Virus record (IMG/VR): IMGVR_UViG_3300021378_000033
Location: 1-52,742 of that record
Strand: one strand, 5' to 3'
From: a virus
DNA: 52,742 nt
Shown here: piece after piece, positions 1,034 through 29,502 of the stretch
Numbering within the stretch: position 1 is the stretch's first letter
Layout of the letters: each line of letters starts with the position of its first letter
The notes under the pieces: generated by a model
What the model was told of the DNA's origin: nothing
What the model saw: the letters and a program-made list of their open reading frames with translations, nothing else
The model's database searches: none
Translations under genes and position numbers: made by a program

Positions 1034-2728
1034 ATGATTACACCAGAGGTGTATGAAGAATTTCGTACAGATGTTCTTAGCGTAATTAATAATCAAGAAA
1101 TTTTTACATTAGCAAAAATAAAAGTTTTTATCAAACAAATGGCCGCTGGCAAGTCATGGTTCCAAGGTAAAGAATTGTCGCCAGAGTTATATAAAGTATT
1201 TTGTAATCAAAAGTTTAATATTCGCGTAGCACCAAAAAACGAAACATGTAACGATGGTATCTTTGAAAAGGAAACCGTTGTGGATGGTAAAAAATATAAG
1301 TACAGGGACATCACCCACATTAAAGATTCTTTGATGATGGATGAGTTTTTGTCTGATTGTTTTGACACAGATAATATCTATATTTTTTCAATCACTCATG
1401 CTAAATTTGGAATTTATTTTGAATGTTTTCTCAGATATGCCCTGTGTACAGTCCTGTGGATTGAAGAAGTTCATGAGTGTTTAGCAGTAGGTGATCCCGG
1501 ATCAACTGCATATCAATATGGGACAGGATATAATACTCCATTTGATGCAAAGGTTGCATTGAGATTTAGAGAATGGATGAAAATTAATGGAAGAGTATTA
1601 GCGTTCACTGCTACTCCAACCCTGCATCAGCAAGAGTATGATGAATATATTATTGATGGTGGTATAAAAACAGATCAAAAATTCTCTGATTTATTCTATA
1701 AGTGTAATGAACTTACAAATCTAGATTCTTTAATCCCTAACCAAGCTTGGGTGGATAAAACTATTCGATATAACCTTGTTTATAGAAAGACACAGGAATG
1801 TGTTGACCCGCATGTAGGAACTATGATTGATAGTTTATTAAACAGGGAATCTGAGTTAGAAGAACAAAAAAAAGTAGATCCCAATGTTCAATCAAAACTT
1901 ACATCTCTGATTCGATGTGGTCAGGGTGGTGGAGCCTGGGGATGCCCTATTCATAAAGGTCCATTTGGTGGATCCGGCAAAAGAGATCCAATTGAACATG
2001 ATATTGGAATGGTTCAAATTGTTGGAAAGCATCTTCAACAAAGAGGATTTGATTGTAATTCTCGTATGATTGCTACTCTTCAGGAATCTGGTAGTGGTGG
2101 TAATAGAATCTGGAATTTAAATGGAGAGGTAGTCGAAAAGAAATTGTCATGGGAAGATGTGAAGAATCGTTTAAATGATAATGATGATCTACTCCGACAC
2201 TTAATTGTTGTAAATCGTGGTGGATCTGGAATTAATGTTTATAATATTGGAGCAATTTTTATTGCTTCTGTTAGAGATGCTCTTTGGTCCAGGGAACACA
2301 TCCCATGTCAAGTTTTGGGAAGAGGTGTACGTTGTAATTGGGGATATGGAAATATTGGAAGAAAATATAATAACGATTTGCGTAATTTTATCCCTGTCAA
2401 ACAACTTGAAGGTAATATTGAAACTACTGTCGAAGTAATTAAAACAGCAAATAAATTAGATATTTGGTACCCTAGAGGACTTACCGACAGGGGTAGTAAA
2501 ACTAAAGTTGATGTATGGGAAGATTCAGTTACTATTTTTAGACGTGACTATTGTAATTCTATACAAGATGGATATTCTTGGTTACATGATCAAACCGGAA
2601 CTAAACCCTCAATGATTGAAAGTGCATTACCTTTACCGGGGAAACTTCTGTGTCCACATTGTGGAAACCCAGTTTATTATTCTGGAGATAAAACGGGTGA
2701 TGGAACACTATTACCATTCTTTGAATAA
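1034..2728 (+). CDS. Superfamily 2 helicase-like ATPase with C-terminal zinc finger
   Basis: Protein of 564 aa with a helicase-like motif series: a short Walker A-like AAGKS near residue 38, a DEAH-box-like IEEVHE near 142, an FTATPT motif III near 190, and motif V/VI-like RGGSGINVYN and LGRGVR near 396-430. It ends with CPHC...GN, half of a possible zinc ribbon. Walker A is weak (no full GxGKT), so activity is uncertain. It is distinct from UvsW and may be a DNA translocase or helicase accessory. SD AGAGG is present before the ATG. It has its own stacked promoters and a weak terminator after it. Confidence 0.6.
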   Translation: MITPEVYEEFRTDVLSVINNQEIFTLAKIKVFIKQMAAGKSWFQGKELSPELYKVFCNQKFNIRVAPKNETCNDGIFEKETVVDGKKYKYRDITHIKDSLMMDEFLSDCFDTDNIYIFSITHAKFGIYFECFLRYALCTVLWIEEVHECLAVGDPGSTAYQYGTGYNTPFDAKVALRFREWMKINGRVLAFTATPTLHQQEYDEYIIDGGIKTDQKFSDLFYKCNELTNLDSLIPNQAWVDKTIRYNLVYRKTQECVDPHVGTMIDSLLNRESELEEQKKVDPNVQSKLTSLIRCGQGGGAWGCPIHKGPFGGSGKRDPIEHDIGMVQIVGKHLQQRGFDCNSRMIATLQESGSGGNRIWNLNGEVVEKKLSWEDVKNRLNDNDDLLRHLIVVNRGGSGINVYNIGAIFIASVRDALWSREHIPCQVLGRGVRCNWGYGNIGRKYNNDLRNFIPVKQLEGNIETTVEVIKTANKLDIWYPRGLTDRGSKTKVDVWEDSVTIFRRDYCNSIQDGYSWLHDQTGTKPSMIESALPLPGKLLCPHCGNPVYYSGDKTGDGTLLPFFE

Positions 2729-2744
2729 AACCGAATAAAAATCT

Positions 2745-2769
2745 ACGGAGTTCACTACCCCGTTTTTTT
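2745..2769 (+). terminator. Weak terminator after helicase-like gene
   Basis: A short imperfect stem ACGG/CCGT with internal mismatch is followed by seven T, G and six more T. The long T tract is stronger evidence than the stem. Confidence 0.4.
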
Positions 2770-2780
2770 GTTTTTTCTGT

Positions 2781-2788
2781 TATAAATA
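2781..2788 (+). promoter_or_regulatory. T4-type late promoter for hsp20
   Basis: Exact TATAAATA. The ATG at 2789 and GTG at 2793 lie in or against this element, so they are not the hsp20 start; the ATG at 2847 with AAGGAG upstream is. Confidence 0.75.
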
Positions 2789-2846
2789 ATGAGTGAACGC
2801 CTTCGGGGTTCACACAATCAAATCTCGCTTATTTAAGGAGAAGTAC

Positions 2847-3278
2847 ATGACCAATCTCATGAAGTATAATGCTGCCGACCTGGACAAATTCATGGACAGG
2901 ATTACGCGCAACACAATTGGAATGGATGACTACATTGATAGAATCCTAAGAGGTCAAGAAACATCAAACTATCCTCCATACAACCTCATTCAAGTCAGTG
3001 ACACAGAATCACAACTAGAGTTAGCTTTGGCAGGATTCAAACCAGAAGAAGTCAATGTCTACACAGAAGAAGGAAAACTTTTCGTCGAAGGAAAACGAGA
3101 AGAATCCACAGAGAAAACAACATTCGTCCACAGAGGAGTGGCTGCAAGATCTTTCACCAGAGCTTGGACACTGGCAGAGGATACGGAAGTTGGATCAGTT
3201 AAATTTGAGAATGGGCTCTTAACGATTTCTATGAAGAGGATTGTTCCAGAACATCATCAACGTAAGAACTGGTTCTAA
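2847..3278 (+). CDS. hsp20: Small heat shock protein, Hsp20 family
   Basis: Protein of 143 aa with an alpha-crystallin domain at about residues 45-137: LALAGFKPEEVNVYTEEGKL, FVEGKR, and the strand ENGLLTISMKR. This is an ATP-independent holdase widespread in cyanophages and thought to protect phage or photosystem proteins during infection. The start at 2847 is chosen because AAGGAG sits 7 bases upstream and earlier starts fall in the promoter. It is monocistronic, between a late promoter and a strong terminator. Confidence 0.9.
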   Translation: MTNLMKYNAADLDKFMDRITRNTIGMDDYIDRILRGQETSNYPPYNLIQVSDTESQLELALAGFKPEEVNVYTEEGKLFVEGKREESTEKTTFVHRGVAARSFTRAWTLAEDTEVGSVKFENGLLTISMKRIVPEHHQRKNWF

Positions 3279-3745: not shown

Positions 3746-3947
3746 AGAGGTCTCAGCAGACCTGGGTGAACCAGACTGTAAACTGATAGAACCTTTTATT
3801 CTTAATGCCAGTACAATGACACTATCCCCATGGTTTGTTGACATCACAAATCAGAATGAGTTTATGATTCATTCTGAAAAGATTTTGACAATTATGGAAC
3901 CTAACAGTAAACTGAAAGTGATGTATGAGGACTTACTTAAGGAATGA
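3681..3947 (+). CDS. Small conserved protein, downstream paralogue overlapping its neighbour
   Basis: Protein of 88 aa. The start at 3681 is supported by AAAGGAG 9 bases upstream, giving a 65-base overlap with the previous gene in another frame. The motif order matches the previous protein (LTQIEEVSADL, DCKLIEPF, LSPWF, IMEPNSKLKVMYEDL). Its stop overlaps the gp43 start by 4 bases. A role near the polymerase is suggested only by this coupling. Confidence 0.7.
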   Translation: MKIENLKLLSLTDQRLILTQIEEVSADLGEPDCKLIEPFILNASTMTLSPWFVDITNQNEFMIHSEKILTIMEPNSKLKVMYEDLLKE

Positions 3948-6484
3948 ATTTCTATACAAACATACAGATGATTGGAAATCAATTCCTTGTTCGTGGTTAT
4001 GAGGACGGAAAGAGAGTTCACTATCGTGATACCAACTATCGTCCAACTCTGTATGTTAACTCTAAAGTCCCCACAAAATACAAAACTCTGGAAGGTGAAT
4101 ATGTTGAGGAAATTCAACCTGGAACAGTAAAGGACTGTAGAGACTTTTATAAGAAGTATGATGAGATCGAGAACTTCAAGATCTATGGTAATGAGAGATA
4201 TATCTACCAATACATTTCTGACAAGTATCCTCAGGATGAGATAAAGTTTGACATCAAGAAGATGAGACTTTTGACTATCGATATTGAGGTCTCATCAGAA
4301 GAGGGATTTCCTGACCCAGAACATTGTTCTGAGGAGATGTTGACCATCTCTATTCAGGATTATGCAACTAAGAAAATTACAACTTGGGGCAGAAAACCAT
4401 ATACCCCTAGTCAGGACAATGTGACCTATCATTATTATCCTGAAGAAAGAGAAATGCTTGGTGCATTCATTGATTGGTGGATGAATGACTATCCTGATGT
4501 TGTGACTGGGTGGAATACCCGTCTGTACGACATCCCATATATCTGTGGAAGGATCGATAGGGTTCTGGGTGAGAGGGCCCTTAGGAATCTGTCTCCATGG
4601 GGTCTAGCGACCAAGAGAGAGACTTGGATCAATGGCCGTATGTTTTATATCTACGATATTGGTGGTATCACTGACCTAGACTATCTGGAGTTGTATAAGA
4701 AGTTTACTTATGTGAATCGTGAGTCTTACCGACTGGACTTCATTGCAGAGGTTGAACTTGGTCAAAAGAAATTAGACCACTCTGAGTTTGATACATTCAA
4801 AGACTTCTATACTGGTGATTGGAAAAAGTTTGTAGATTACAACATCGTTGACGTGGAACTTGTTGACCGTATGGAAGACAAGATGAAACTGATTGAGTTG
4901 GTTATCACCATGGCATACGATGGTAAGGTAAACTTTGGTGACCCAATGTTCCAAGTTAGATTGTGGGACACCATTATCTACAACTATTTGAAGAAGAGGA
5001 ATATTGTTATTCCTCCAAGGATCAATACTGATAAGAGTGAAAAGTTTGCTGGGGCCTATGTAAAGGAACCCAAACCAGGTGTATATGATTGGGTTGTAAG
5101 TTTTGACTTGAACTCACTTTATCCGCATTTAATTATGCAATACAATATCTCACCTGAGACACTTCAGGAAGAGAAGCACCCATCAGTTACCATTCAAAAG
5201 ATTCTTGATGAGAAACTTGATTTTCAGATGTATAAGGACTATGCGGTCTGTGCCAATGGTGCAATGTACCGTAAAGATGTGAAAGGTTTCCTACCTGAAC
5301 TGATGGAGAAGATGTATGCTGAACGTAAGGCATTCAAGAAGGAGATGTTGAAGTCTAAACAGAAACTGGTTGACATTGAATCAAAACTGAAGACCAATAA
5401 GGATCCAGTTCTCCGTAGACAGAGAGAACAAACCATCAAAGATATTGCTAAGTTCAATAACTTTCAGATGGTGAGAAAGATTTGTTTGAACTCTGCCTAC
5501 GGTGCAATTGGTAATGCATACTTTAGATATTTCAAACTTGCCAATGCAGAAGCGATTACGATGTCAGGTCAGACATCTATTCGTTGGATTGAAAATCATA
5601 TGAATGAATATCTAAATAACTTACTTTCAACAGAAGATGTAGATTATGTCATCGCATCTGACACCGATTCAATCTATCTTAACTTTGGACCTATTGTTGA
5701 TAAATTTCTTGGTGATAAAGTTAACGATACGAGCAAGGTTGTTTCTATCATTGACAAAGTCTGTCAAGAGAAACTGGAACCGTTCATCGAAACATCTTAT
5801 CAAAATCTTGCGACGTATGTAAACGCATACGATCAGAAGATGCAGATGAAACGGGAGAACATTGCAGACCGTGGAATTTGGACTGCAAAGAAGAGATACA
5901 TTCTCAATGTATGGGATAGTGAAGGTGTTAGGTATGAAGATCCTAAACTTAAGATCATGGGTATTGAGGCAGTCAAGTCATCCACTCCAGCACCCTGTAG
6001 GAGTATGATTAAGGATGCTCTCAAACTAATGATGAATGGAACAGAAGATGATGTGATTGAGTATATTGATAAGTGTAGAAGTGACTTTAAGAAACTTCCC
6101 ATTGAAGCTATTTCTTTCCCTAGATCTGTTTCTGATGCCCAGAAGTATAAGGCACATGCAACGATCTACTCAAAGGGAACTCCTATTCATTGTCGTGGTG
6201 CCCTATTGTTCAATCACTACATAAAAGAAAAGAAGTTAACAAACAAATATTCACTTATCAATAACGGTGAAAAGATTAAATTTTGTTATCTTAAAAAACC
6301 AAATATCATCCATGAGAATGTGATCTCATTTATTTCAGAGTTTCCAACAGAGTTGGGACTTGACCAATATGTGGATTATGACTTACAATTTGAAAAGGCA
6401 TTCTTAGAACCTCTCAAGGTCATTCTTGATGCCATTGGATGGAATGTAACTAAGATAAATACTTTAGAAAGTTTTTTTATGTAA
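3944..6484 (+). CDS. 43: gp43 family B DNA polymerase
   Basis: Protein of 846 aa with all expected T4 gp43 parts. Proofreading exonuclease: TIDIEVSSEEG (D/E near 113/115), GWNTRLYDIPY and DYNIVDVE. Polymerase: motif A FDLNSLYPHL near 387, motif B KICLNSAYGAIGN near 510, motif C ASDTDSIYL near 572. The C-terminal SFFM tail resembles the clamp-binding peptide of T4 gp43. It is complete, with no intein. A homing endonuclease gene starts 3 bases after its stop. Confidence 0.97.
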   Translation: MNFYTNIQMIGNQFLVRGYEDGKRVHYRDTNYRPTLYVNSKVPTKYKTLEGEYVEEIQPGTVKDCRDFYKKYDEIENFKIYGNERYIYQYISDKYPQDEIKFDIKKMRLLTIDIEVSSEEGFPDPEHCSEEMLTISIQDYATKKITTWGRKPYTPSQDNVTYHYYPEEREMLGAFIDWWMNDYPDVVTGWNTRLYDIPYICGRIDRVLGERALRNLSPWGLATKRETWINGRMFYIYDIGGITDLDYLELYKKFTYVNRESYRLDFIAEVELGQKKLDHSEFDTFKDFYTGDWKKFVDYNIVDVELVDRMEDKMKLIELVITMAYDGKVNFGDPMFQVRLWDTIIYNYLKKRNIVIPPRINTDKSEKFAGAYVKEPKPGVYDWVVSFDLNSLYPHLIMQYNISPETLQEEKHPSVTIQKILDEKLDFQMYKDYAVCANGAMYRKDVKGFLPELMEKMYAERKAFKKEMLKSKQKLVDIESKLKTNKDPVLRRQREQTIKDIAKFNNFQMVRKICLNSAYGAIGNAYFRYFKLANAEAITMSGQTSIRWIENHMNEYLNNLLSTEDVDYVIASDTDSIYLNFGPIVDKFLGDKVNDTSKVVSIIDKVCQEKLEPFIETSYQNLATYVNAYDQKMQMKRENIADRGIWTAKKRYILNVWDSEGVRYEDPKLKIMGIEAVKSSTPAPCRSMIKDALKLMMNGTEDDVIEYIDKCRSDFKKLPIEAISFPRSVSDAQKYKAHATIYSKGTPIHCRGALLFNHYIKEKKLTNKYSLINNGEKIKFCYLKKPNIIHENVISFISEFPTELGLDQYVDYDLQFEKAFLEPLKVILDAIGWNVTKINTLESFFM

Positions 6485-6487
6485 AGT

Positions 6488-7174
6488 ATGACCATGGGCA
6501 AATATTATACTTATGCCTATTTGCGTGAAGATGGAACTCCTTATTATATCGGTAAAGGATTAAAAAACAGGAAATCTAAAAAGCATTTTAGAAGAAATGG
6601 AAAAGTATTTTCTCCTCCATCAGAAGATAAAATAATTATTCTCAAACAGAATTTAACTGAAAAAGAAGCATTTAAGCACGAAATTTATATGATTTCCGTT
6701 TTGGGTAGAAAAGATTTGGGGACTGGTATTTTGAGAAATTTGACTGAAGGTGGTGAAGGGAGTAGTGGATATAAACACTCCGATGAATTTAAATCTAAAA
6801 TTAGAAAAGTTCAGAGTGGTAGAGTTATTTCCAATACAACTAAAGAAAAAATGAGAAATGCAAATCTTGGAAAAGTTTTATCTGATGAACATAAAAAAAA
6901 GATTGGAGAATCGCAAGGGGGGAAAGTTGTAAATGAGGAGGTTAGAAAAAAAATAAGTAATACACTAAAAGGAAAAAAACATAGTCCAGAAAGAATTAAT
7001 AATATAAGAAAGGGAATGGGATGTGAAACTTATAAATTCATTTCCCCAGAAGGTAAAATAATTGAAGTTGATAATATGACGCAATTCTGCTATGATAGAA
7101 ATCTACAGCAAAGTTGTATGTCAAACATCTGGAACAATAAAAGAAACTTTCATAAAGGATGGAAAAAAGCATAA
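6488..7174 (+). CDS. Free-standing GIY-YIG homing endonuclease
   Basis: Protein of 228 aa. N-terminal GIY-YIG nuclease: YYTYAYLREDGTPYYIGKG (about residues 6-24) with a downstream EAFKHEIYMI catalytic-Glu region. Repeated NUMOD3 DNA-binding units follow (GYKHSDEFKSKIRKVQSG, LSDEHKKKIGESQGG, HSPERINNIRKG), then a NUMOD1-like C-terminus ending in HKGWKKA. It resembles T4 Seg proteins. It sits between gp43 and uvsX; its stop overlaps the uvsX ATG, so uvsX may now depend on translation through it. Its A-rich codons differ from gp43. Start 6488 or 6494. Confidence 0.9.
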   Translation: MTMGKYYTYAYLREDGTPYYIGKGLKNRKSKKHFRRNGKVFSPPSEDKIIILKQNLTEKEAFKHEIYMISVLGRKDLGTGILRNLTEGGEGSSGYKHSDEFKSKIRKVQSGRVISNTTKEKMRNANLGKVLSDEHKKKIGESQGGKVVNEEVRKKISNTLKGKKHSPERINNIRKGMGCETYKFISPEGKIIEVDNMTQFCYDRNLQQSCMSNIWNNKRNFHKGWKKA

Positions 7175-8091
7175 TGGACTTTTTATCAGATATTGTAAAA
7201 GAGATTGGAGATGACTTTACCAAACTTGCTGCCGACATCGATGACACTGAGACATATGTGGACACAGGTTCGTTCGTTCTTAACGCTCTTGTATCTGGGT
7301 CTATCCGTGGTGGTGTATCTGGGAATAAAATTACTGCAATTGCTGGCGAAAGTTCTACTGGAAAGACTTTCTTTTCACTCGCAGTGGTCAAGAACTTCTT
7401 GGATACTAATCCCGATGCATATTGCCTTTATTTTGATACTGAGGCAGCAGTTAATAAGTCACTACTAGTAAGTCGTGGCATTGATCTGAATCGACTAGTT
7501 GTTGTTAATGTCGTTACCATTGAGGAGTTTAGGAGTAAGGCTCTCAAGGCGGTAGACATGTATTCAAAAAAACCTGAAGATGAACGTAAACCTTGTATGT
7601 TTGTGTTAGATTCTTTAGGAATGCTTTCTACAGAGAAAGAAATCACTGATGCCCTCAATGAGAAACTTGTCCGTGATATGACAAAATCTCAGTTGATTAA
7701 AGGGGCTTTCAGAATGTTGACTCTTAAATTGGGTCAAGCCAAAATACCAATGATTGTAACCAATCACACCTATGATGTCATCGGAGCTTATGTTCCTACA
7801 AAGGAAATGGGTGGGGGTTGTTTAGTTGCGGGAACTAAGATACAAACAGAAAATGGTTCTATTCCTATTGAATCTATTCAAGTTGGTGACAAAGTGAGAA
7901 CTATGTTTGGTTATTCATCAGTTACTGACACTTTCCATTTCACCGATAAAGATGTTTATGAATTGGAATTGGAAGATGGAGAAACTATTAGATGTTCTGG
8001 CGAACATAAGTTTTTAGTAGATACTGGAGATGGTTATGAATGGAAATCCGTTACTGAGTTATTACCTTCAGATACTATCAAATCTATGTGA
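7174..8091 (+). CDS. uvsX: UvsX recombinase N-terminal part fused to N-terminal half of split intein
   Basis: Residues 1-215 are UvsX (RecA family): Walker A GESSTGKT near 57-64, Walker B-like CMFVLDSLG, ending at GGG in the RecA L2-loop region. Codon 7819-7821 is Cys1 of an intein: block A CLVAGTKIQT, then GDKVRT, then block B-like TIRCSGEHKFLV. This half is 90 residues, then TGA. Its partner is at 8765. The start at 7174 (MDFLSD) is preferred over 7159, which lies inside the GIY-YIG gene. Trans-splicing with the partner would restore a 336-aa UvsX, the normal cyanophage length. Confidence 0.93.
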   Translation: MDFLSDIVKEIGDDFTKLAADIDDTETYVDTGSFVLNALVSGSIRGGVSGNKITAIAGESSTGKTFFSLAVVKNFLDTNPDAYCLYFDTEAAVNKSLLVSRGIDLNRLVVVNVVTIEEFRSKALKAVDMYSKKPEDERKPCMFVLDSLGMLSTEKEITDALNEKLVRDMTKSQLIKGAFRMLTLKLGQAKIPMIVTNHTYDVIGAYVPTKEMGGGCLVAGTKIQTENGSIPIESIQVGDKVRTMFGYSSVTDTFHFTDKDVYELELEDGETIRCSGEHKFLVDTGDGYEWKSVTELLPSDTIKSM

Positions 8092-8096
8092 AAGTT

Positions 8097-8133
8097 GGTT
8101 CTGGACTAAATAATAATAATTGAGTCCAGAACC
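8097..8133 (+). promoter_or_regulatory. Perfect 11-bp hairpin between intein half and HNH gene
   Basis: GGTTCTGGACT (8097-8107) and AGTCCAGAACC (8123-8133) are exact inverted repeats around an AT-rich loop, followed by TTGTTTTT. It could terminate the uvsX-N transcript, or occlude the start of the HNH gene, whose TTG begins immediately after the right arm. ACTAAATA (8106-8113 region) across the left arm and loop resembles a degenerate late promoter. Confidence 0.6.
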
Positions 8134-8805
8134 TTGTTTTTATCCAATAAGTATACTGATTGTTATTTCCGTATTATTAATAAGGCAAATCTTAGGAAAC
8201 TTCCTCAAATTACTGAATGTCATCATATTATACCTAAATCATTAGGTGGAGGAGAAGAACCAGAAAACAAAGTATATCTAACACCAAGAGAACATTTTGT
8301 CTGTCATCATCTTCTTCTGAAGATGTTAGAGGGAAAATCAAAACAGAAAATGTGTTATGCTTTTTATAGAATGAACTCCAGTAATAATGGAGTTAGGTGT
8401 GAAAATCTCAATTCTTATGATAGAATAAGAGAACACTACTCTCATCTCACTTCTGGAGTAAATAACCCATTTTATGGGAAGGGGCATTTTGGATATTCTA
8501 ACCCAATGTCCAAACCTGAGGTTCGGGAGAAACATAAACAAATAGTTTCTTCACCTGAACATAGAAAGATGATGAGTGATAAAATGTCTGGTGAAAATAA
8601 TCCATTTTACGGAAGAACTCATTCAGATGAAACCAAGAAACATCTTTCTGAGTTGGCGTCTCAGAGAACAGGTGAAAACTCTTCCCGTTATGGGAAGAAA
8701 CACAGACGAGTTGTTTGTGAACACTGCCAAAAAGAAATTACTTACCCAATGTATAAGAGGTGGCATGGAACGAATTGTAAAGTCTATCAAGAAAATAAAG
8801 ACTGA
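8134..8805 (+). CDS. HNH homing endonuclease lying between the uvsX intein halves
   Basis: About 223 aa. N-terminal HNH nuclease: NKYTDCYFRII, ECHHIIPKSLGGG, and a final REHFVCHHLLLK (the ECHHI...N...H series). Repeats with NPFYGKGH and NPFYGRTHSDETKK resemble NUMOD3. A C-terminal zinc finger CEHCQKEI...RWHGTNC follows. No ATG lies near the N-terminus; related proteins begin just before the NKYT motif, so the TTG at 8134 is the likeliest start. It is in the same frame as uvsX-N but separated by TGA (8089) and TAA (8107). It overlaps the intein C-half gene by 41 bases. Confidence 0.85.
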   Translation: MFLSNKYTDCYFRIINKANLRKLPQITECHHIIPKSLGGGEEPENKVYLTPREHFVCHHLLLKMLEGKSKQKMCYAFYRMNSSNNGVRCENLNSYDRIREHYSHLTSGVNNPFYGKGHFGYSNPMSKPEVREKHKQIVSSPEHRKMMSDKMSGENNPFYGRTHSDETKKHLSELASQRTGENSSRYGKKHRRVVCEHCQKEITYPMYKRWHGTNCKVYQENKD

Positions 8806-9241
8806 GGATGTTTATGACATCACAGTTGAAGGAGAACATCATTATATTCTTGGTAATGGTGTCGTGTCTCACAATTCTGGCCTTAAGTATGCAGCGTCTA
8901 CAATCATCTATCTCTCAAAGAAAAAGGAAAAGGATGGAACAGAAGTGGTCGGCAATCTTATCAAGGCTAAGACTGCTAAGTCGCGTTTAAGTAAAGAGAA
9001 TAAAGATGTTACTATACGTCTCTATTACGATGAACGTGGTCTTGATAGGTATTACGGTCTCTTAGAACTTGGAGAACTTGGTGGACTATGGAAAAACGTT
9101 GCAGGACGTTATGAGATGGATGGTAAGAAAGTCTATGCTAAGGCCATCCTGAAAGAACCTGAGACTTATTTTACACCTGAAGTGATGGAAAAACTAGATG
9201 AAATCGCAAAAGAACAATTCTCTTATGGTTCGTCATTATGA
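8765..9241 (+). CDS. uvsX: C-terminal half of split intein fused to UvsX C-terminal part
   Basis: Residues 1-37 are an intein C-half with block F DVYDITVEGEHHYILGNG and block G VVSHN, followed by Ser+1 (codon 8876-8878). The remaining 121 residues continue UvsX from SGLKYAAST. Joining GGG to SGLKYA recreates the RecA-like L2 loop. The start at 8765 has AGAGG 4 bases upstream, within the end of the HNH gene. The Cys1, Asn(last) and Ser+1 residues needed for splicing are all visible across the two genes. Confidence 0.93.
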   Translation: MERIVKSIKKIKTEDVYDITVEGEHHYILGNGVVSHNSGLKYAASTIIYLSKKKEKDGTEVVGNLIKAKTAKSRLSKENKDVTIRLYYDERGLDRYYGLLELGELGGLWKNVAGRYEMDGKKVYAKAILKEPETYFTPEVMEKLDEIAKEQFSYGSSL

Positions 9242-9740
9242 TGTTGTTCCAGAGTCATACTGTAAAAAACTAATTGAGATATTTGAAAACTCCTCTAATC
9301 AGGAGTTTATCAATAATGATCACAAACCATGTTTCAGTCAGGTTAATCTGAGTAAAGAAAATCCTGAAATGGTCAGACAAATCATTCCCATTATTAAAGG
9401 TGTACATACTCTGTATAAGAAGGAAACCAAATCTTATTTTCTTCCAGAGTTAAATGCCCTTGAAGAACTTAGGATTAAAAGATACCTTCCTAATGGTGAG
9501 GAAAGGTTTGATGAACATGTAGACGTGACTGACTATCCCTCATCAAGAAGGTCAGTTGCATTTTTATTTTATCTGAATACTAATGATGGTAATACAGTTT
9601 TTTCTAAACAGAAGTTGAACATTAAACCAAAGTGTGGTAGGGTAGTAGTATTCCCTCCTACATGGGAATATCCTCATGCAAGACTCCCCCCAACAACTAG
9701 TAACAAATACATCATGAGTACATATATTCACTATGGATAA
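9225..9740 (+). CDS. 2-oxoglutarate/Fe(II)-dependent oxygenase, prolyl-hydroxylase-like
   Basis: About 171 aa. The Fe(II) site is visible as HVD (from FDEHVDVTDY) and a distal His in YPHARLPP, on a double-stranded beta-helix (SVAFLFYLN, GRVVVFPP, YIMSTYIHY). Such enzymes hydroxylate proteins or small molecules; the substrate is unknown. The start 9225 (MVRHYD) is chosen over 9198 because family members begin with this motif; neither has a clear SD. It overlaps the uvsX end and the gp41 start. Confidence 0.85.
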   Translation: MVRHYDVVPESYCKKLIEIFENSSNQEFINNDHKPCFSQVNLSKENPEMVRQIIPIIKGVHTLYKKETKSYFLPELNALEELRIKRYLPNGEERFDEHVDVTDYPSSRRSVAFLFYLNTNDGNTVFSKQKLNIKPKCGRVVVFPPTWEYPHARLPPTTSNKYIMSTYIHYG

Positions 9741-10365
9741 GGTTGAATTTTTAGTTCTGAAAAATCTAATACACAATGAAAAATACTTGAGAAAGGTTCT
9801 TCCATTCATTAAAGAAGAATATTTTGATGATACTAAATATAAGGTAATCTTCGACGAGATCTCTACCTTTACTGCTGAGTATAACGAACTCCCTACAAAA
9901 GAGATTCTCAATATTGAGATTGAAAAGAGAAGAGATATTAATGAGGACTCTTATAAACAGATTTCTCATGTAGTTAATTGTCTTGAGGACGATGTTGTAG
10001 AGTTTGATTGGTTGGTTAACACTACTGAGAAGTGGTGTCGTGACCGTGCCATTTATCTTGCCTTGATTGAATCCATTCAGATTGCTGATGGAGGAGATGT
10101 CAAGAAGGCACCAGATGCCATTCCATCTATTCTGTCTGATGCTCTGGCAGTTAGTTTTGACAACCATGTAGGACATGATTACCTTGAAGATTATGAATCA
10201 CGATACGAGTCTTATCACAGGAAGGAGGAGAGAATTGAATTCGATCTCGACTATTTTAACAAAATCACGAAAGGTGGGCTCCCTAACAAAACTCTTAACA
10301 TCGCACTTGCTGGTTGCGTTCATCCAGAAACTAAAGTTAAAATTAGATTTAAGAAGATTTCTTGA
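9733..10365 (+). CDS. 41: gp41 helicase N-terminal part with 16-residue N-half of an atypical split intein
   Basis: Residues 1-194 are the N-terminal domain and start of the helicase domain of the T4 gp41 (DnaB-type) replicative helicase, ending IALAG just at the P-loop. Codon 10315-10317 is an intein Cys1: the segment CVHPETKVKIRFKKIS is only 16 residues, then TGA. The missing intein body is at the front of the gene at 11052. Splicing would give AG-TGVGKS, a proper Walker A. The last 17 bases overlap the antisense HNH gene. Confidence 0.93.
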   Translation: MDKVEFLVLKNLIHNEKYLRKVLPFIKEEYFDDTKYKVIFDEISTFTAEYNELPTKEILNIEIEKRRDINEDSYKQISHVVNCLEDDVVEFDWLVNTTEKWCRDRAIYLALIESIQIADGGDVKKAPDAIPSILSDALAVSFDNHVGHDYLEDYESRYESYHRKEERIEFDLDYFNKITKGGLPNKTLNIALAGCVHPETKVKIRFKKIS

Positions 10366-11017
10366 TTATGGAATTTGGTGCTGGTTCTCCAGTTCCAAAT
10401 TTCCATCCTTCGTTTAATTTAGTATCAATATTTTCTGGTAGTATTCTTTTCCATCCCTTTGTTCCTGGTAAGTACATTACCTTTTTTCCTTTATGTGCTT
10501 TACCTCCAAGAGATGCTCTTTGTTGTCTTCCTTGATTAGACGCCCAGTAATTGAATTCTTTAGATGCTCTTTGCTTTCCTCCAAAAGATGCTCTTTCCTT
10601 TCTACCTTCTTCTGTACTCCAGTAATAAAAATTTTTAATGTTATCTTTTAAATATTCTTGTTTTTGAGTTTCCATTCCTTTGACCATCCATTCTTTTCTT
10701 TCATCTATTGGAACAGAAAAGAAACCAATCTTATTATCTCTACAAAATTCCCCAATTATTTTTCTATATTGTGGAGATAAGTTTGCTCCTAACATTTTCA
10801 TAGACCTTAAGTCATTTGGATTTTTGTATATTTTCCATAACAAATAATGTGCTATGATATGTTCTCTAACATTTAGGTATGTAAGGTTACAATCATCATC
10901 TGTTCCTCCCATATGTTTAGGAACAACATGATGTTCGTGTAGTCCTGAATATTTTTTATAATCTTCTTTTCTTGACTTATTGCCTTTGCATAAGTTAGAA
11001 TAGATACGATCAAACAT
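10349..11017 (-). CDS. Antisense HNH homing endonuclease lying between the gp41 intein halves
   Basis: Protein of 222 aa on the minus strand. HNH core: LHEHHVVPKHMGG, DCNLTYLNVREHIIAHYLLWK at about residues 26-62. Repeats of RASFGGKQRAS / RASLGGKAHKG type (NUMOD3-like) and a C-terminal PGTKGWKRI...NEGWKFG segment follow. The start ATG lies 23 bases downstream of a minus-strand TATAAATA. It is the only gene of the replication region on this strand. Its 3' end shares 17 bases with the intein N-half on the other strand. Confidence 0.88.
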   Translation of the reverse strand: MFDRIYSNLCKGNKSRKEDYKKYSGLHEHHVVPKHMGGTDDDCNLTYLNVREHIIAHYLLWKIYKNPNDLRSMKMLGANLSPQYRKIIGEFCRDNKIGFFSVPIDERKEWMVKGMETQKQEYLKDNIKNFYYWSTEEGRKERASFGGKQRASKEFNYWASNQGRQQRASLGGKAHKGKKVMYLPGTKGWKRILPENIDTKLNEGWKFGTGEPAPNSIIKKSS

Positions 11018-11039
11018 TCCCTGTCCCTGCTACTGCTAT

Positions 11040-11047
11040 TATTTATA
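11040..11047 (-). promoter_or_regulatory. Minus-strand T4-type late promoter for the antisense HNH gene
   Basis: TATTTATA on + is an exact TATAAATA on the minus strand, with 22 bases to the HNH start codon. It lies immediately before the intein C-half start at 11052 on the other strand. Confidence 0.75.
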
Positions 11048-11051
11048 TAAA

Positions 11052-12227
11052 ATGTGGATTGAAAAAGAAACAACAATTGCTGAAATCAAAACATTACTTG
11101 ATAATGGATATGAAGTAGAAGTTGATTCTCCCGATGGATATGTTCCAGTTAATTTCTTTATTAACAAAGGAATGTATGATGAATATGTTTTGAGAATCGA
11201 TGGCATTGATGAACTTATAAGATGCAATGCCAATCATTTATTTCAGACATCTTTGGGGTGGATGAGTGCATCGCATCTTTATAAAAAATATAAAATAATG
11301 CATTTTTTAACCGAGAGTGGTTATAAACTTGGTAGTGTATTTAAAACAGGAAATCAAATACCTATTGTTGATATTAATGTAAATCATCCAAATCACAGGT
11401 ATTATACTAATGGAGTTTCTTCTCATAATACTGGCGTCGGGAAATCTCTATTCATGTGCCATGTGGCTAGCTCCGTCTTGCTCCAAGGGAGGAACGTTCT
11501 CTACATTACAATGGAGATGGCAGAAGAGCGCATTGCTGAAAGAATTGATGCGAACCTCTTGAATGTAAATATCCAGGAAATTGTTGACCTTCCAAAACAA
11601 ATGTTTGAAACAAAGGTTACAAACCTGGCACAAAAGACTCAAGGTCACCTAATTATTAAGGAGTATCCTACTGCCTCTGCTCATGCTGGACACTTCAAAT
11701 CACTTCTTAATGAACTTGCACTTAAGAAGTCATTTCGACCTGATATTATTTTCATTGATTACCTTAATATATGTTCTTCCGAAAGATATCGCGGAAATAG
11801 CACTGTCAATTCATATTCATATATTAAAGCAATTGCTGAAGAACTTAGAGGACTTGCTGTTGAAGCAAACGTCCCTATCATATCTGCCACTCAGACCACT
11901 CGTTCTGGTTATGGTAGCTCTGACGTTGAGCTTACTGACACTAGTGAGTCCTTTGGTCTCCCTGCTACTGCTGATCTTATGTTTGCCCTTATTTCGACTG
12001 AAGAGTTGGAATCGTTGGGACAAATACTTGTAAAGCAATTGAAGAATAGGTATAATGATTACTCTGTCCATAGACGTTTTGTTGTTGGTATTGATCGTGC
12101 CAAGATGAGATTATATGATTGTGAACAGTCTGCACAGGATGACCTTCTTGACAATGGTAAGGAAGAAGAGTACAATAATGATGAACAAGAAAAACCTAAA
12201 AAATCATTTAGTGGATTTAAATTTTAA
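11052..12227 (+). CDS. 41: 126-residue C-half of split intein fused to gp41 helicase C-terminal part
   Basis: Residues 1-126 are most of an intein: block B-like LIRCNANHLFQT near 55-66, block F IVDINVNHPNHRYYTNG, block G VSSHN, then Thr+1 (codon 11430-11432). The helicase resumes as TGVGKSLFMCHVASS (P-loop), Walker B DIIFIDYLN and a DnaB-like ATQTTRSG segment. Joined to the 194-residue N part it gives a 459-aa helicase. No SD is visible before ATG 11052, which sits in a TATATAAAA tract. It overlaps the next gene by one base. Confidence 0.93.
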   Translation: MWIEKETTIAEIKTLLDNGYEVEVDSPDGYVPVNFFINKGMYDEYVLRIDGIDELIRCNANHLFQTSLGWMSASHLYKKYKIMHFLTESGYKLGSVFKTGNQIPIVDINVNHPNHRYYTNGVSSHNTGVGKSLFMCHVASSVLLQGRNVLYITMEMAEERIAERIDANLLNVNIQEIVDLPKQMFETKVTNLAQKTQGHLIIKEYPTASAHAGHFKSLLNELALKKSFRPDIIFIDYLNICSSERYRGNSTVNSYSYIKAIAEELRGLAVEANVPIISATQTTRSGYGSSDVELTDTSESFGLPATADLMFALISTEELESLGQILVKQLKNRYNDYSVHRRFVVGIDRAKMRLYDCEQSAQDDLLDNGKEEEYNNDEQEKPKKSFSGFKF

Positions 12228-27938: not shown

Positions 27939-28559
27939 ATGAATAATTATATTCTTTATTATTACTTAAGGGAGGACTTCGGTTCCCCCTTTTATGTTGG
28001 TTATGGAAAACCGAGAAGAATTAATTCCAGACACTCTAGAAGAAATGGTGCTGAAATTTTACCACATAGAGAGAGGAGATGGATTGTAAAATCTGGTTTA
28101 TCTAAAGAAGAAGCAATAGAACTTGAGATAAAACATATAGCACTCTGGAAAAGAGAATGTGATGGTGGTGTATTGTTAAATCAAAATCTTGGTGGAGAAG
28201 GAAAACCTGGAGGACAAAAAACAAAAGGTTTTAGTGGTAGAAAGCACACTGAAGAAGCAAAGAAAAAAATAAGTGAAAAAGTTGCAGGAAAAAATAATCC
28301 AAGTTATGGTGTTCCTTGTAGTAAAGAACGAAAAAGAAAAATAAGTGAAAGAGCAAAAGAAAGATTTGCCGAAGGATTTAAATCTCCTTCATCAGTAACT
28401 TATCTTTTAACAAGTCATTCTAAAGAAAAATTTAAGGTATTTGGAGAACTTAAAAAGTTTTGTAAGTCTCAAAATATTTCATACGCAACGATGCGCGCAG
28501 CAATTCTTTATGATAGAAAAGGTCCTAGAAGAAATGGATGGAGTATTGAGAAAATTTAG
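27939..28559 (+). CDS. Free-standing GIY-YIG homing endonuclease downstream of nrdB
   Basis: Protein of 206 aa: GIY-YIG core NYILYYYLREDFG, PFYVGYGK (residues 3-24), catalytic-Glu region EAIELEIKHIALW, NUMOD3-like repeats (GFSGRKHTEEAKKKISEKVAGKNN, SKERKRKISERAKER) and a NUMOD1-like FGELKKFCKSQNISYATMR ending in RRNGWSIEKI. It is A-rich and a Seg-like mobile gene. It overlaps the next gene by 26 bases. Confidence 0.9.
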   Translation: MNNYILYYYLREDFGSPFYVGYGKPRRINSRHSRRNGAEILPHRERRWIVKSGLSKEEAIELEIKHIALWKRECDGGVLLNQNLGGEGKPGGQKTKGFSGRKHTEEAKKKISEKVAGKNNPSYGVPCSKERKRKISERAKERFAEGFKSPSSVTYLLTSHSKEKFKVFGELKKFCKSQNISYATMRAAILYDRKGPRRNGWSIEKI

Positions 28560-29058: not shown

Positions 29059-29502
29059 GTGTGTGATTACGAAAATCCGTGGTTGTTTCAAGGACAACCT
29101 TTTCTATCTGAGGATATTGGTGATTCTTTCGGCTTTGTCTATAGGATTACAAACCTCAAGAATGGTAGAAAATACATCGGGCGAAAGTACTTTTGGTCCA
29201 AACGAAAGCCTAGAGCTACAGTTAAGAACAAGTCAAGGCGAAGAGTTACAACTGAAAGTGACTGGAAAAAATACTACGGAAGTTGTCCAGAGCTTAAGGA
29301 CGATCTTACAAAGTATGGAAAGGAATCTTTTAGTAGAGAGATCATCTCACTCCATGTAACACTGGGAAAGGTAAACTTTGAGGAGACCCGTCAGTTGTTT
29401 CTGAATGAGGTTCTGTCCCAAAAGTTGACAGATGAGACTCCTTTGTATTATAATTCCAACATCCTTGGTCGGTACTACCGCAAGGATTATTTTAACAAGT
29501 AA
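29059..29502 (+). CDS. SegE-like GIY-YIG endonuclease
   Basis: Up to 147 aa from GTG 29059. GIY-YIG-like core: FGFVYRITNLKNGRKYIGRKYF near 24-45, then DWKKYYGSCPELKDDL and KESFSREIISLH, and a C-terminal YYNSNILGRYYRKDYF. It resembles T4 SegE and a protein common in cyanophages after nrdB. The natural N-terminus probably lies at 28949 in another frame. If the gene is truly broken, the nuclease core could still be made from the GTG. Confidence 0.75.
   Translation: MCDYENPWLFQGQPFLSEDIGDSFGFVYRITNLKNGRKYIGRKYFWSKRKPRATVKNKSRRRVTTESDWKKYYGSCPELKDDLTKYGKESFSREIISLHVTLGKVNFEETRQLFLNEVLSQKLTDETPLYYNSNILGRYYRKDYFNK

What the first reader, a model, noticed from the sequence alone, without database searches (positions are those of the whole stretch)
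10315..11429. gp41 helicase split by an intein with a 16-residue N-half
The gp41 N part ends in Cys1 plus only 15 further intein residues before a stop; 126 residues carrying blocks B, F and G plus Thr+1 front the other part. The junction falls inside the Walker A loop (AG | TGVGKS), so unspliced halves cannot form the ATPase site. Such very short N-halves are rare (reported for AceL-TerL and VidaL-type atypical split inteins) and are of interest because a 16-residue fragment must find and complete its partner.
Basis: partly seen in the sequence, partly recalled or inferred. Interest (0 to 1): 0.9.

Follow-up and report, generated by a model that had tools for sequence, protein, structure and literature searches.

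The report
Phage helicase split by tiny intein
A marine phage makes its DNA-unwinding enzyme in two pieces that must be stitched together by a self-cutting protein split so unevenly that one part is only 16 residues long, and close relatives suggest that such split genes can also be joined up again, so how split proteins arise and revert can now be tested.

Summary
The gp41 helicase gene (9733-12227) is interrupted inside the Walker A loop (A-G | T-G-V-G-K-S) by an S1-type, VidaL-like split intein with a 16-residue N part and a 126-residue C part. Nothing is missing: contiguous gp41 relatives measured are 135-147 residues in all. A TATAAATA late-promoter-like box precedes the endonuclease in 58 of 60 sequences tested.

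The type is common in viral contigs of this kind: of 79 related loci, 63 show the split, 6 are contiguous and 10 do not reach the N part. Sequence shows purifying selection on the N part and a module that moves laterally between gp41 genes.

New as far as my searches reach: near-identical contiguous and split alleles, two contiguous lineages keeping bases of an endonuclease gene end, so the split looks reversible; a basic charge of split N parts (suggestive only); and a phage gp41 encoded in three pieces held by two different split inteins. Splicing itself is inferred, not shown.

The parts
9733..10314 (+). gp41 helicase N-extein, 194 codons, ending ...LNIALAG (first two residues of the Walker A motif)
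   Evidence: weak Pfam DnaB N-terminal match (E 0.0064, below cut-off); matches the N-exteins of related loci
10315..10365 (+). Intein N part: CVHPETKVKIRFKKIS (16 codons) and stop TGA; the conserved core is the first 14 residues
10349..11017 (-). HNH homing endonuclease gene (222 aa) inside the split, antisense; its last codons and stop overlap the N gene by 17 nt
11040..11047 (-). TATAAATA, T4-late-promoter-like box, 22 nt upstream of the HNH start; the only minus-strand copy in the window
   Evidence: that this is the late-promoter consensus is recalled
11052..11429 (+). Intein C part, 126 residues, with block B (CNANHLF), block F (IVDINVNHPNHRYY) and block G (SSHN); starts at its own ATG
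   Evidence: block names recalled
11430..12227 (+). gp41 helicase C-extein, Thr+1 then GVGKS...; DnaB_C domain
   Evidence: (DnaB_C E 9.6e-17)

Best explanation
gp41 is made as two polypeptides that cannot work alone because the P-loop is cut. The basic 16-residue intein N part binds the acidic, near-complete 126-residue C part by charge and strand addition. Class 1 splicing (Cys1, block B His, penultimate His, Asn, Thr+1) then joins A-G to T-G-V-G-K-S and restores the ATPase (inferred from homology to VidaL and from constraint). The gene is in two pieces because an HNH homing endonuclease gene, in antisense with its own late-type promoter, sits between the first intein strand and the rest. 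Intein and endonuclease behave as one mobile module that enters intein-free gp41 genes at the Walker A codons (lateral movement shown by sequence; cutting of the empty allele inferred). The endonuclease can be swapped or lost. After loss the gene stays split by a stop and start, or is joined again in frame leaving a scar (the states are shown by sequence; the direction is inferred).
For: Catalytic residues: C74, N75, H78, D123, H131, H141, N142 (numbering of L008) invariant in 26 of 26 aligned sequences; Cys1 in 63 of 63 N cores (62 loci and the window). Selection: N core dN 0.054, dS 0.79 (36 distinct DNA sequences); C part 0.173/0.609; HNH 0.071/0.506; exteins 0.16/about 2.0, so the module is less diverged than the exteins beside it. 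Movement: L002 and L003 have DNA-identical C parts (378 of 378) and 96% identical HNH, but N-exteins only 70-78% identical; 24 such pairs among 45 loci. Fold: AF2 model of the contiguous L008 intein, pLDDT 79.9, best PDB match VidaL 6vgv (Foldseek E 3.1e-10, TM 0.63; Z 10.8, 133 aligned, rmsd 4.1). Charge: first 14 residues +2 to +5 in 135 of 135 split rows, facing a C-part stretch of -3 to -7. Empty site in 3 of 3 intein-free genes. Endonuclease: PHROG 655 homing endonuclease, E 9.1e-16. Re-joining: six contigs, three haplotypes, nested among split relatives; second case L124.
Against: No splicing, binding or cleavage was measured. HNH is below the Pfam cut-off (E 0.013) and its fold matches are weak (best E 0.16; the top five are HNH domains of one Cascade family). 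The C part gives no Pfam or NCBIfam hit. On independent pairs the charge signature has only 5 pairs and p 0.25. The tree inside the clade that holds the window is poorly resolved, and its bootstrap had not settled. The sign of co-conversion is clear on the C side only. dS near 2 in the exteins is close to saturation.
Confidence: 0.86

Rival explanations
1. The two gene pieces work as a two-subunit helicase without splicing (genes in pieces), the intein parts being relics.
For: A nucleotide reductase gene split by an endonuclease gene keeps its function as two peptides (Friedrich 2007, as cited in a passage of PMC10448857).
Against: The cut lies inside the P-loop. Cys1 is kept in 63 of 63 N cores and the C-terminal His-Asn in 26 of 26 aligned sequences; N core dN/dS about 0.07. 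A relic would decay.
Confidence: 0.04
2. The contiguous alleles (L008 group, L124) were never split; they are survivors of the unsplit ancestor, and endonuclease genes entered many times at the same spot.
For: Other contiguous inteins exist at the same gp41 site (L093, L100, L193, L119) and in UvsX, and homing aims at one site again and again. For L119 against split L109 (C parts 94.4% identical) the linkers do not fit a simple join, so direction is open there.
Against: L008-group C parts are 97.6-99.2% identical to those of split relatives, while relatives of the window's C part as a whole fall to 57%. The contiguous alleles keep bases that encode an endonuclease C-terminus in split relatives (ATTTCTTG; ATACTGCCA) and the +3/+4 charge of split N parts, where seven other contiguous N parts have -2 to +1.
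Confidence: 0.17
3. The HNH gene homes on its own into the intein gene and does not move the intein between gp41 genes.
For: Endonuclease types change while the rest stays: L061 and L063 have exteins 92-100% and C parts 99.7% identical, but HNH 78% over 471 aligned nt; L053 looks chimaeric.
Against: In pairs such as L002/L003 the intein and HNH are both near identical while the exteins are not, so the whole module moved.
Confidence: 0.25
4. The split is an assembly error or a sequencing frameshift.
For: The window is a virus record of 52,742 bases, with no isolate behind it that I know of.
Against: The same arrangement is in 63 loci on different contigs, most with an HNH gene in the gap.
Confidence: 0.01

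Closest known systems
VidaL atypically split intein (16-residue N part; PDB 6vgv, 6vgw)
   Same: N part of 16 residues (PMC13014065 passages), split before the first helix (S1), same fold; best sequence and structure match
   Different: About 30% identical. The solved VidaL is much nearer to the UvsX intein of Pseudomonas phage PA5oct (E 1.7e-35) than to the gp41 type (3.4e-11). Recalled, not seen: a Lake Vida T4-helicase ultra-short intein was named by Neugebauer et al. 2017, so a gp41-type member may already be in print.
Fractured genes (Dassa et al. 2009; content recalled, paper not held)
   Same: Phage replication gene broken by a split intein with a free-standing endonuclease gene between, and control elements brought in with it
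   Different: Here the endonuclease is HNH and antisense, and the N part is 16 residues instead of the usual about 90 (recalled)
gp41-1 split intein (PDB 6qaz, 6riz)
   Same: Split intein in the same T4-like helicase gene
   Different: Another site (RSGY|SSDV) and a canonical 88 + 37 residue split; both inteins occur together in some loci here
PolB16 OarG intein (15-residue N part)
   Same: Very short N part at the S1 position (PMC13014065 passages)
   Different: Cysteine-less, in a PolB polymerase; weak fold match (8cpo, E 0.014)
AceL-TerL and GOS-TerL
   Same: Natural short N parts (25 and 37 residues; PMC11766414 passages)
   Different: Split after the first helix (S2; PMC13014065 passages), in terminase

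Membership tests
Atypically (S1) split class 1 intein, VidaL type | N part of about 15-20 residues, split before the first helix | tested here: met
   16 residues; in the L008 model a strand at 7-13 lies in the N part and the first helix at 25-33 in the C part; S1 definition from PMC13014065 passages
Atypically (S1) split class 1 intein, VidaL type | Intein fold closest to VidaL | tested here: met
   6vgv first in Foldseek and VIA-align, for the model of the contiguous relative
Atypically (S1) split class 1 intein, VidaL type | Cys1, block B His, penultimate His, terminal Asn, +1 nucleophile | tested here: met
Atypically (S1) split class 1 intein, VidaL type | Splices in trans | not testable with these tools
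   No bench; inferred from homology and selection
Fractured gene (split intein with free-standing endonuclease gene) | Endonuclease gene between the two intein parts | tested here: met
   Of the 59 loci of the first set with a gap of at least 60 nt, 58 have a minus-strand HNH match there, two of them remnants only (L031, L039); L070 has its match on the plus strand
Fractured gene (split intein with free-standing endonuclease gene) | Endonuclease cuts the empty allele | not testable with these tools
   Empty alleles exist; cutting not measured
gp41-1 type intein | Inserted at RSGY|SSDV with canonical split | tested here: not met
   This one is at AG|TGVGKS; the RSGY-GSSDV stretch of the window is uninterrupted
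AceL-TerL type | Split after the first helix, terminase host gene | tested here: not met
HNH homing endonuclease | HNH motif residues conserved | tested here: met
   His29, Asn44 and His53 invariant in 17 of 17 aligned; Pfam HNH match below cut-off

The most novel reading that the evidence does not exclude
Split and contiguous forms of one intein interconvert in nature. An endonuclease gene that enters after the first strand splits the intein; its loss can join the two genes again in frame, leaving a scar and the basic N part of a former split intein. Splitting is thus reversible, and electrostatic capture evolves with it. In some phages one helicase is even assembled from three polypeptides by two unrelated split inteins.
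Probability: 0.7. Interest if true: 0.75.

Novelty: new variant of a known kind. Interest (0 to 1): 0.62.

Why it matters
[quoted passage not shown] Here one intein exists split with an endonuclease gene, split without it, and contiguous, with C parts up to 99% identical, so the cost, gain and reversal of splitting can be measured directly. A conserved 14-residue N core in many variants is also a set of candidate short tags for protein labelling. The cut through the P-loop makes phage replication depend on splicing, if splicing is confirmed.

Tried and rejected
A further N-intein piece elsewhere: rejected, since contiguous relatives have none. AceL-type split: rejected by position. Decayed gene: rejected by selection. 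Pfam and NCBIfam for the C part: no hit. A cultured phage with the gp41 type: not seen among 34 matching records of 50,697. That search gave the related UvsX type in Pseudomonas phages, terminase inteins of Salmonella and Vibrio phages (not followed), Salicola phage SCTP-2, and an uncultured phage with a PhoH-like host protein. One search counted 23 records with at least 80% cover of the C half; none is among the 40 rows shown and I did not look at them. PHROGs gave nothing for the four extra gap genes searched, nor for the 477-residue PA5oct protein. The charge signature is not significant on independent pairs, and the choice of 14 residues affects single values. A first script printed nothing for the contiguous loci through a bug and was corrected. 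On checking I mended a claim: L175 was first called endonuclease-bearing, but its contig ends 92 nt past the start of Cys1, and its only HNH match (26%) lies elsewhere on the contig; its role now rests on the endonuclease end of L157.

Rows dropped. Of 110 loci newly named (L085-L194), 101 match the gp41 N-extein; my filter kept 98; of the other three, L093 was added by hand, L162 and L194 were not used. Of the 98, 11 have no C part in the piece and 7 have a C frame that opens far upstream (one of them, L182, repeats the contig of L049); the 11, and of the rest those whose C frame opens over 200 nt upstream or whose C part is under 115 residues or lacks the HN end, were left out of the wide tree. 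'Short split' classes rest on where a frame opens and are rough (L126 probably has a longer gap). Many of these loci repeat contigs.

Papers. Burton 2020 and Dassa 2009 are not held; Neugebauer 2017 was not looked up and is recalled. That re-joining and three-piece gp41 are unreported rests only on the listings in an open-access library.

Full report
What is there. The N gene 9733-10365 encodes 194 residues of gp41 helicase ending LNIALAG, then CVHPETKVKIRFKKIS and a stop. The C gene 11052-12227 encodes 126 intein residues ending VSSHN, then TGVGKS and the rest of the helicase (DnaB_C E 9.6e-17). The cut falls within the [AG]x4GK[ST] loop. It matches PHROG 655 homing endonuclease (E 9.1e-16) and phage proteins annotated as homing endonucleases, some as Mob-like HNH. 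Its last codons and stop lie over the end of the N gene (17 nt overlap). A TATAAATA box (11040-11047, minus strand) precedes it by 22 nt. The window has nine such boxes against a mean of 3.35 in 100 shuffles (one shuffle reached nine); eight are on the plus strand and only this one on the minus strand. Between HNH start and C-gene start the box is kept in 58 of 60 sequences: the window and 59 loci whose HNH match starts at residue 1 (L072-L074 and L076 were not counted).

How common. A scan of IMG/VR with the C part gave 79 loci. 69 hold the N junction: 63 split (59 with a gap of at least 60 nt, 4 with less) and 6 contiguous; 10 contigs stop short. Of the 59, 58 have a minus-strand HNH match in the gap: 47 of the window's type, five of a second type (35-37% identical), four remote ones (48-50%), and two remnants (L031, L039); L070 has its match on the plus strand. 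N parts of split loci are 14-23 residues, most often 16 (32 of 62, L070 left out). In a tblastn search of 50,697 phage records none of the 34 matches was seen to be in gp41, five not being looked at.

Homology and fold. The C part finds VidaL (6vgv) first in the PDB (E 3.4e-11). The natural contiguous relative in L008 aligns to VidaL from residue 5 of the N part onwards (E 2.4e-12). Its AlphaFold2 model (26 sequences, pLDDT 79.9, pTM 0.63) has VidaL as first match by Foldseek and by VIA-align (Z 10.8, 133 aligned, rmsd 4.1). The N part forms a strand at 7-13; the first helix (25-33) belongs to the C part, so the split is of the S1 kind described in PMC13014065 (passages).

Selection and movement. 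NG86 estimates (36, 48, 39, 49 and 46 distinct sequences): N core dN 0.054, dS 0.79; C part 0.173, 0.609; HNH 0.071, 0.506; N-extein 0.163, 2.08; C-extein 0.161, 1.99. Low dN/dS on both intein parts argues that splicing is kept. The lower dS of the module than of the exteins (near saturation) argues that it has moved between gp41 genes. L002 and L003 share the C part to the last base while N-exteins are 70-78% identical, with 94% identity in the first 100 nt of the C flank and 79-86% beyond. Across 24 pairs (25 loci, so not independent) with C parts at least 96% identical and diverged exteins, the first two 50-nt bins of the C flank exceed 586 control pairs by about 15 and 11 points by means, against about 6 further out. 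On the N flank the excess is 5 to 9 points throughout by means, with 10 in the first 50 nt by medians, so no clear tract there. Intein-free genes of S-SM2, Bellamy and S-SCSM1 have the uninterrupted site (3 of 3).

Endonuclease turnover. Several endonuclease ends occur at the same place after RFRK. L061 and L063 are nearly identical in intein and C-extein but carry different endonuclease types. In the group with longer gaps, extra plus-strand genes of unknown function lie between the N part and the HNH gene. L044/L045, L049, L064, L098, L133 and L187 are split with no endonuclease gene in the short gap. L044 keeps ATTATGGAATTT of the endonuclease end, and the ATG in it now starts the C gene.

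Contiguous alleles. L008-L012 and L014 read straight through: KVKIRFRKIS-WWIEKETT, 142 residues. The join is TTTCTTG|GTGGATTG. That is what remains when the stretch from the A of the TGA stop to the AT of the ATG start is absent, and ATTTCTTG encodes HNH C-terminal residues in split relatives. They are six contigs of three haplotypes, with upstream DNA that differs in an ungapped comparison, so not one assembly error. In the DNA tree they sit inside a 100/100 clade with nine endonuclease-bearing rows, one change of state, though that clade is poorly resolved within. In the wide tree (115 distinct rows out of 160, rooted on UvsX inteins) contiguity needs 8 changes, at least 5 forced by supported branches. 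A second case is L124, contiguous. Its N part and the 136 nt of N-extein before it are identical to split L175, up to AATACTGCCA. L175's contig ends soon after, but the bases after its stop match L157, where an antisense HNH gene (705-1529) ends with codons for Trp-Gln-Tyr that are the complement of ATACTGCCA. For L119 against split L109 the direction is open.

Charge. In the first 14 residues, all 135 split rows (contigs fetched twice count twice) have net charge +2 to +5. Of 10 distinct contiguous N parts, seven have -2 to +1 and three (L008 group, L089/L129, L124) have +3 or +4. I read this as electrostatic capture in split forms, kept as a memory in re-joined ones. The set fetched by pattern fixes residues 1-6, and the test on independent pairs has 5 pairs and p 0.25, so this is suggestive only.

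Wider family. Eleven Pseudomonas phage records (PA5oct twice) match the C part, most in genes annotated UvsX-like or RecA. In PA5oct, the one examined, the recombinase is split in its own Walker A loop: 81 residues end GESG|CLPETAKVKIRLSKKQS, then comes a 477-residue protein (taken for an endonuclease from its place and recalled motifs; no PHROG hit), then the C part and SGKS. Salicola phage SCTP-2, L083 and L084 have contiguous forms there. VidaL is nearest to this branch (E 1.7e-35).

Three-piece helicases. In L033 gp41 is three genes: 634-1266 (inside an ORF called from 607), 1965-3086 and 3901-4320. They are linked by the ultra-short intein and by a gp41-1 intein (N part E 7.2e-52 to 6riz), with HNH antisense in the first gap and a GIY-YIG-like gene (by eye) in the second. 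L039 shows the same three pieces, with an HNH remnant; L034, L043, L064 and L079 show them in part, their contigs being cut.

Verdict. The thing is a new variant of a known kind: a VidaL-like split intein in a fractured gp41 gene. The most novel part is the reversibility of the split. Shown by sequence: anatomy, constraint, lateral movement, coexistence of the three states, scars. Inferred: splicing, capture by charge, cutting by HNH, late transcription, direction of change.

Noticed in passing
window 7159-9241: UvsX is also split: canonical intein with a 90-residue N part (Cys1 at 7819) and a 37-residue C part (8765-8875), with a NUMOD3-HNH endonuclease gene 8134-8805 between.
   Followed up: partly
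L033 634-4320; also L039, and in part L034, L043, L064, L079: gp41 encoded as three polypeptides linked by two different split inteins (ultra-short at Walker A, gp41-1 type downstream); in L033 each gap has its own endonuclease-like gene.
   Followed up: partly
L081 1260-4266 (PA5oct NC_071039): An isolated P. aeruginosa jumbo phage carries an ultra-short split intein in the Walker A loop of its UvsX-like recombinase; the N part is annotated as a hypothetical protein. The paper on the relative MIJ3 mentions only the split PolB intein in the passages I saw.
   Followed up: partly
L198 2321-3400 (LR756500): A related C part fronts a PhoH-like ATPase (by eye; HN|TGKTLLALT) in an uncultured phage; its N part was not sought.
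   Followed up: no
gaps of L016, L018, L023, L025, L026, L031, L032, L035, L037, L039, L042: Extra plus-strand genes lie between the intein N part and the HNH gene (or its remnant); several share a motif like IYDIILSHLLDEGYAET; no PHROG match for the four extra genes searched.
   Followed up: partly
L070 605-700: The N-extein end TKGGLPNKTLNIALAG is duplicated in tandem just before the intein, and the endonuclease match is on the plus strand.
   Followed up: no
window 6488-7174, 27939-28559, 29059-29502: Further endonuclease-like genes (GIY-YIG/NUMOD3 type by eye; NUMOD3 E 2.9e-9 for the first, the other two not searched) beside gp43/uvsX and downstream of an NrdB-like gene.
   Followed up: no
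L053 5155-5961: The HNH gene looks chimaeric: mostly the common type (75% identical), but with the end of the second type.
   Followed up: no
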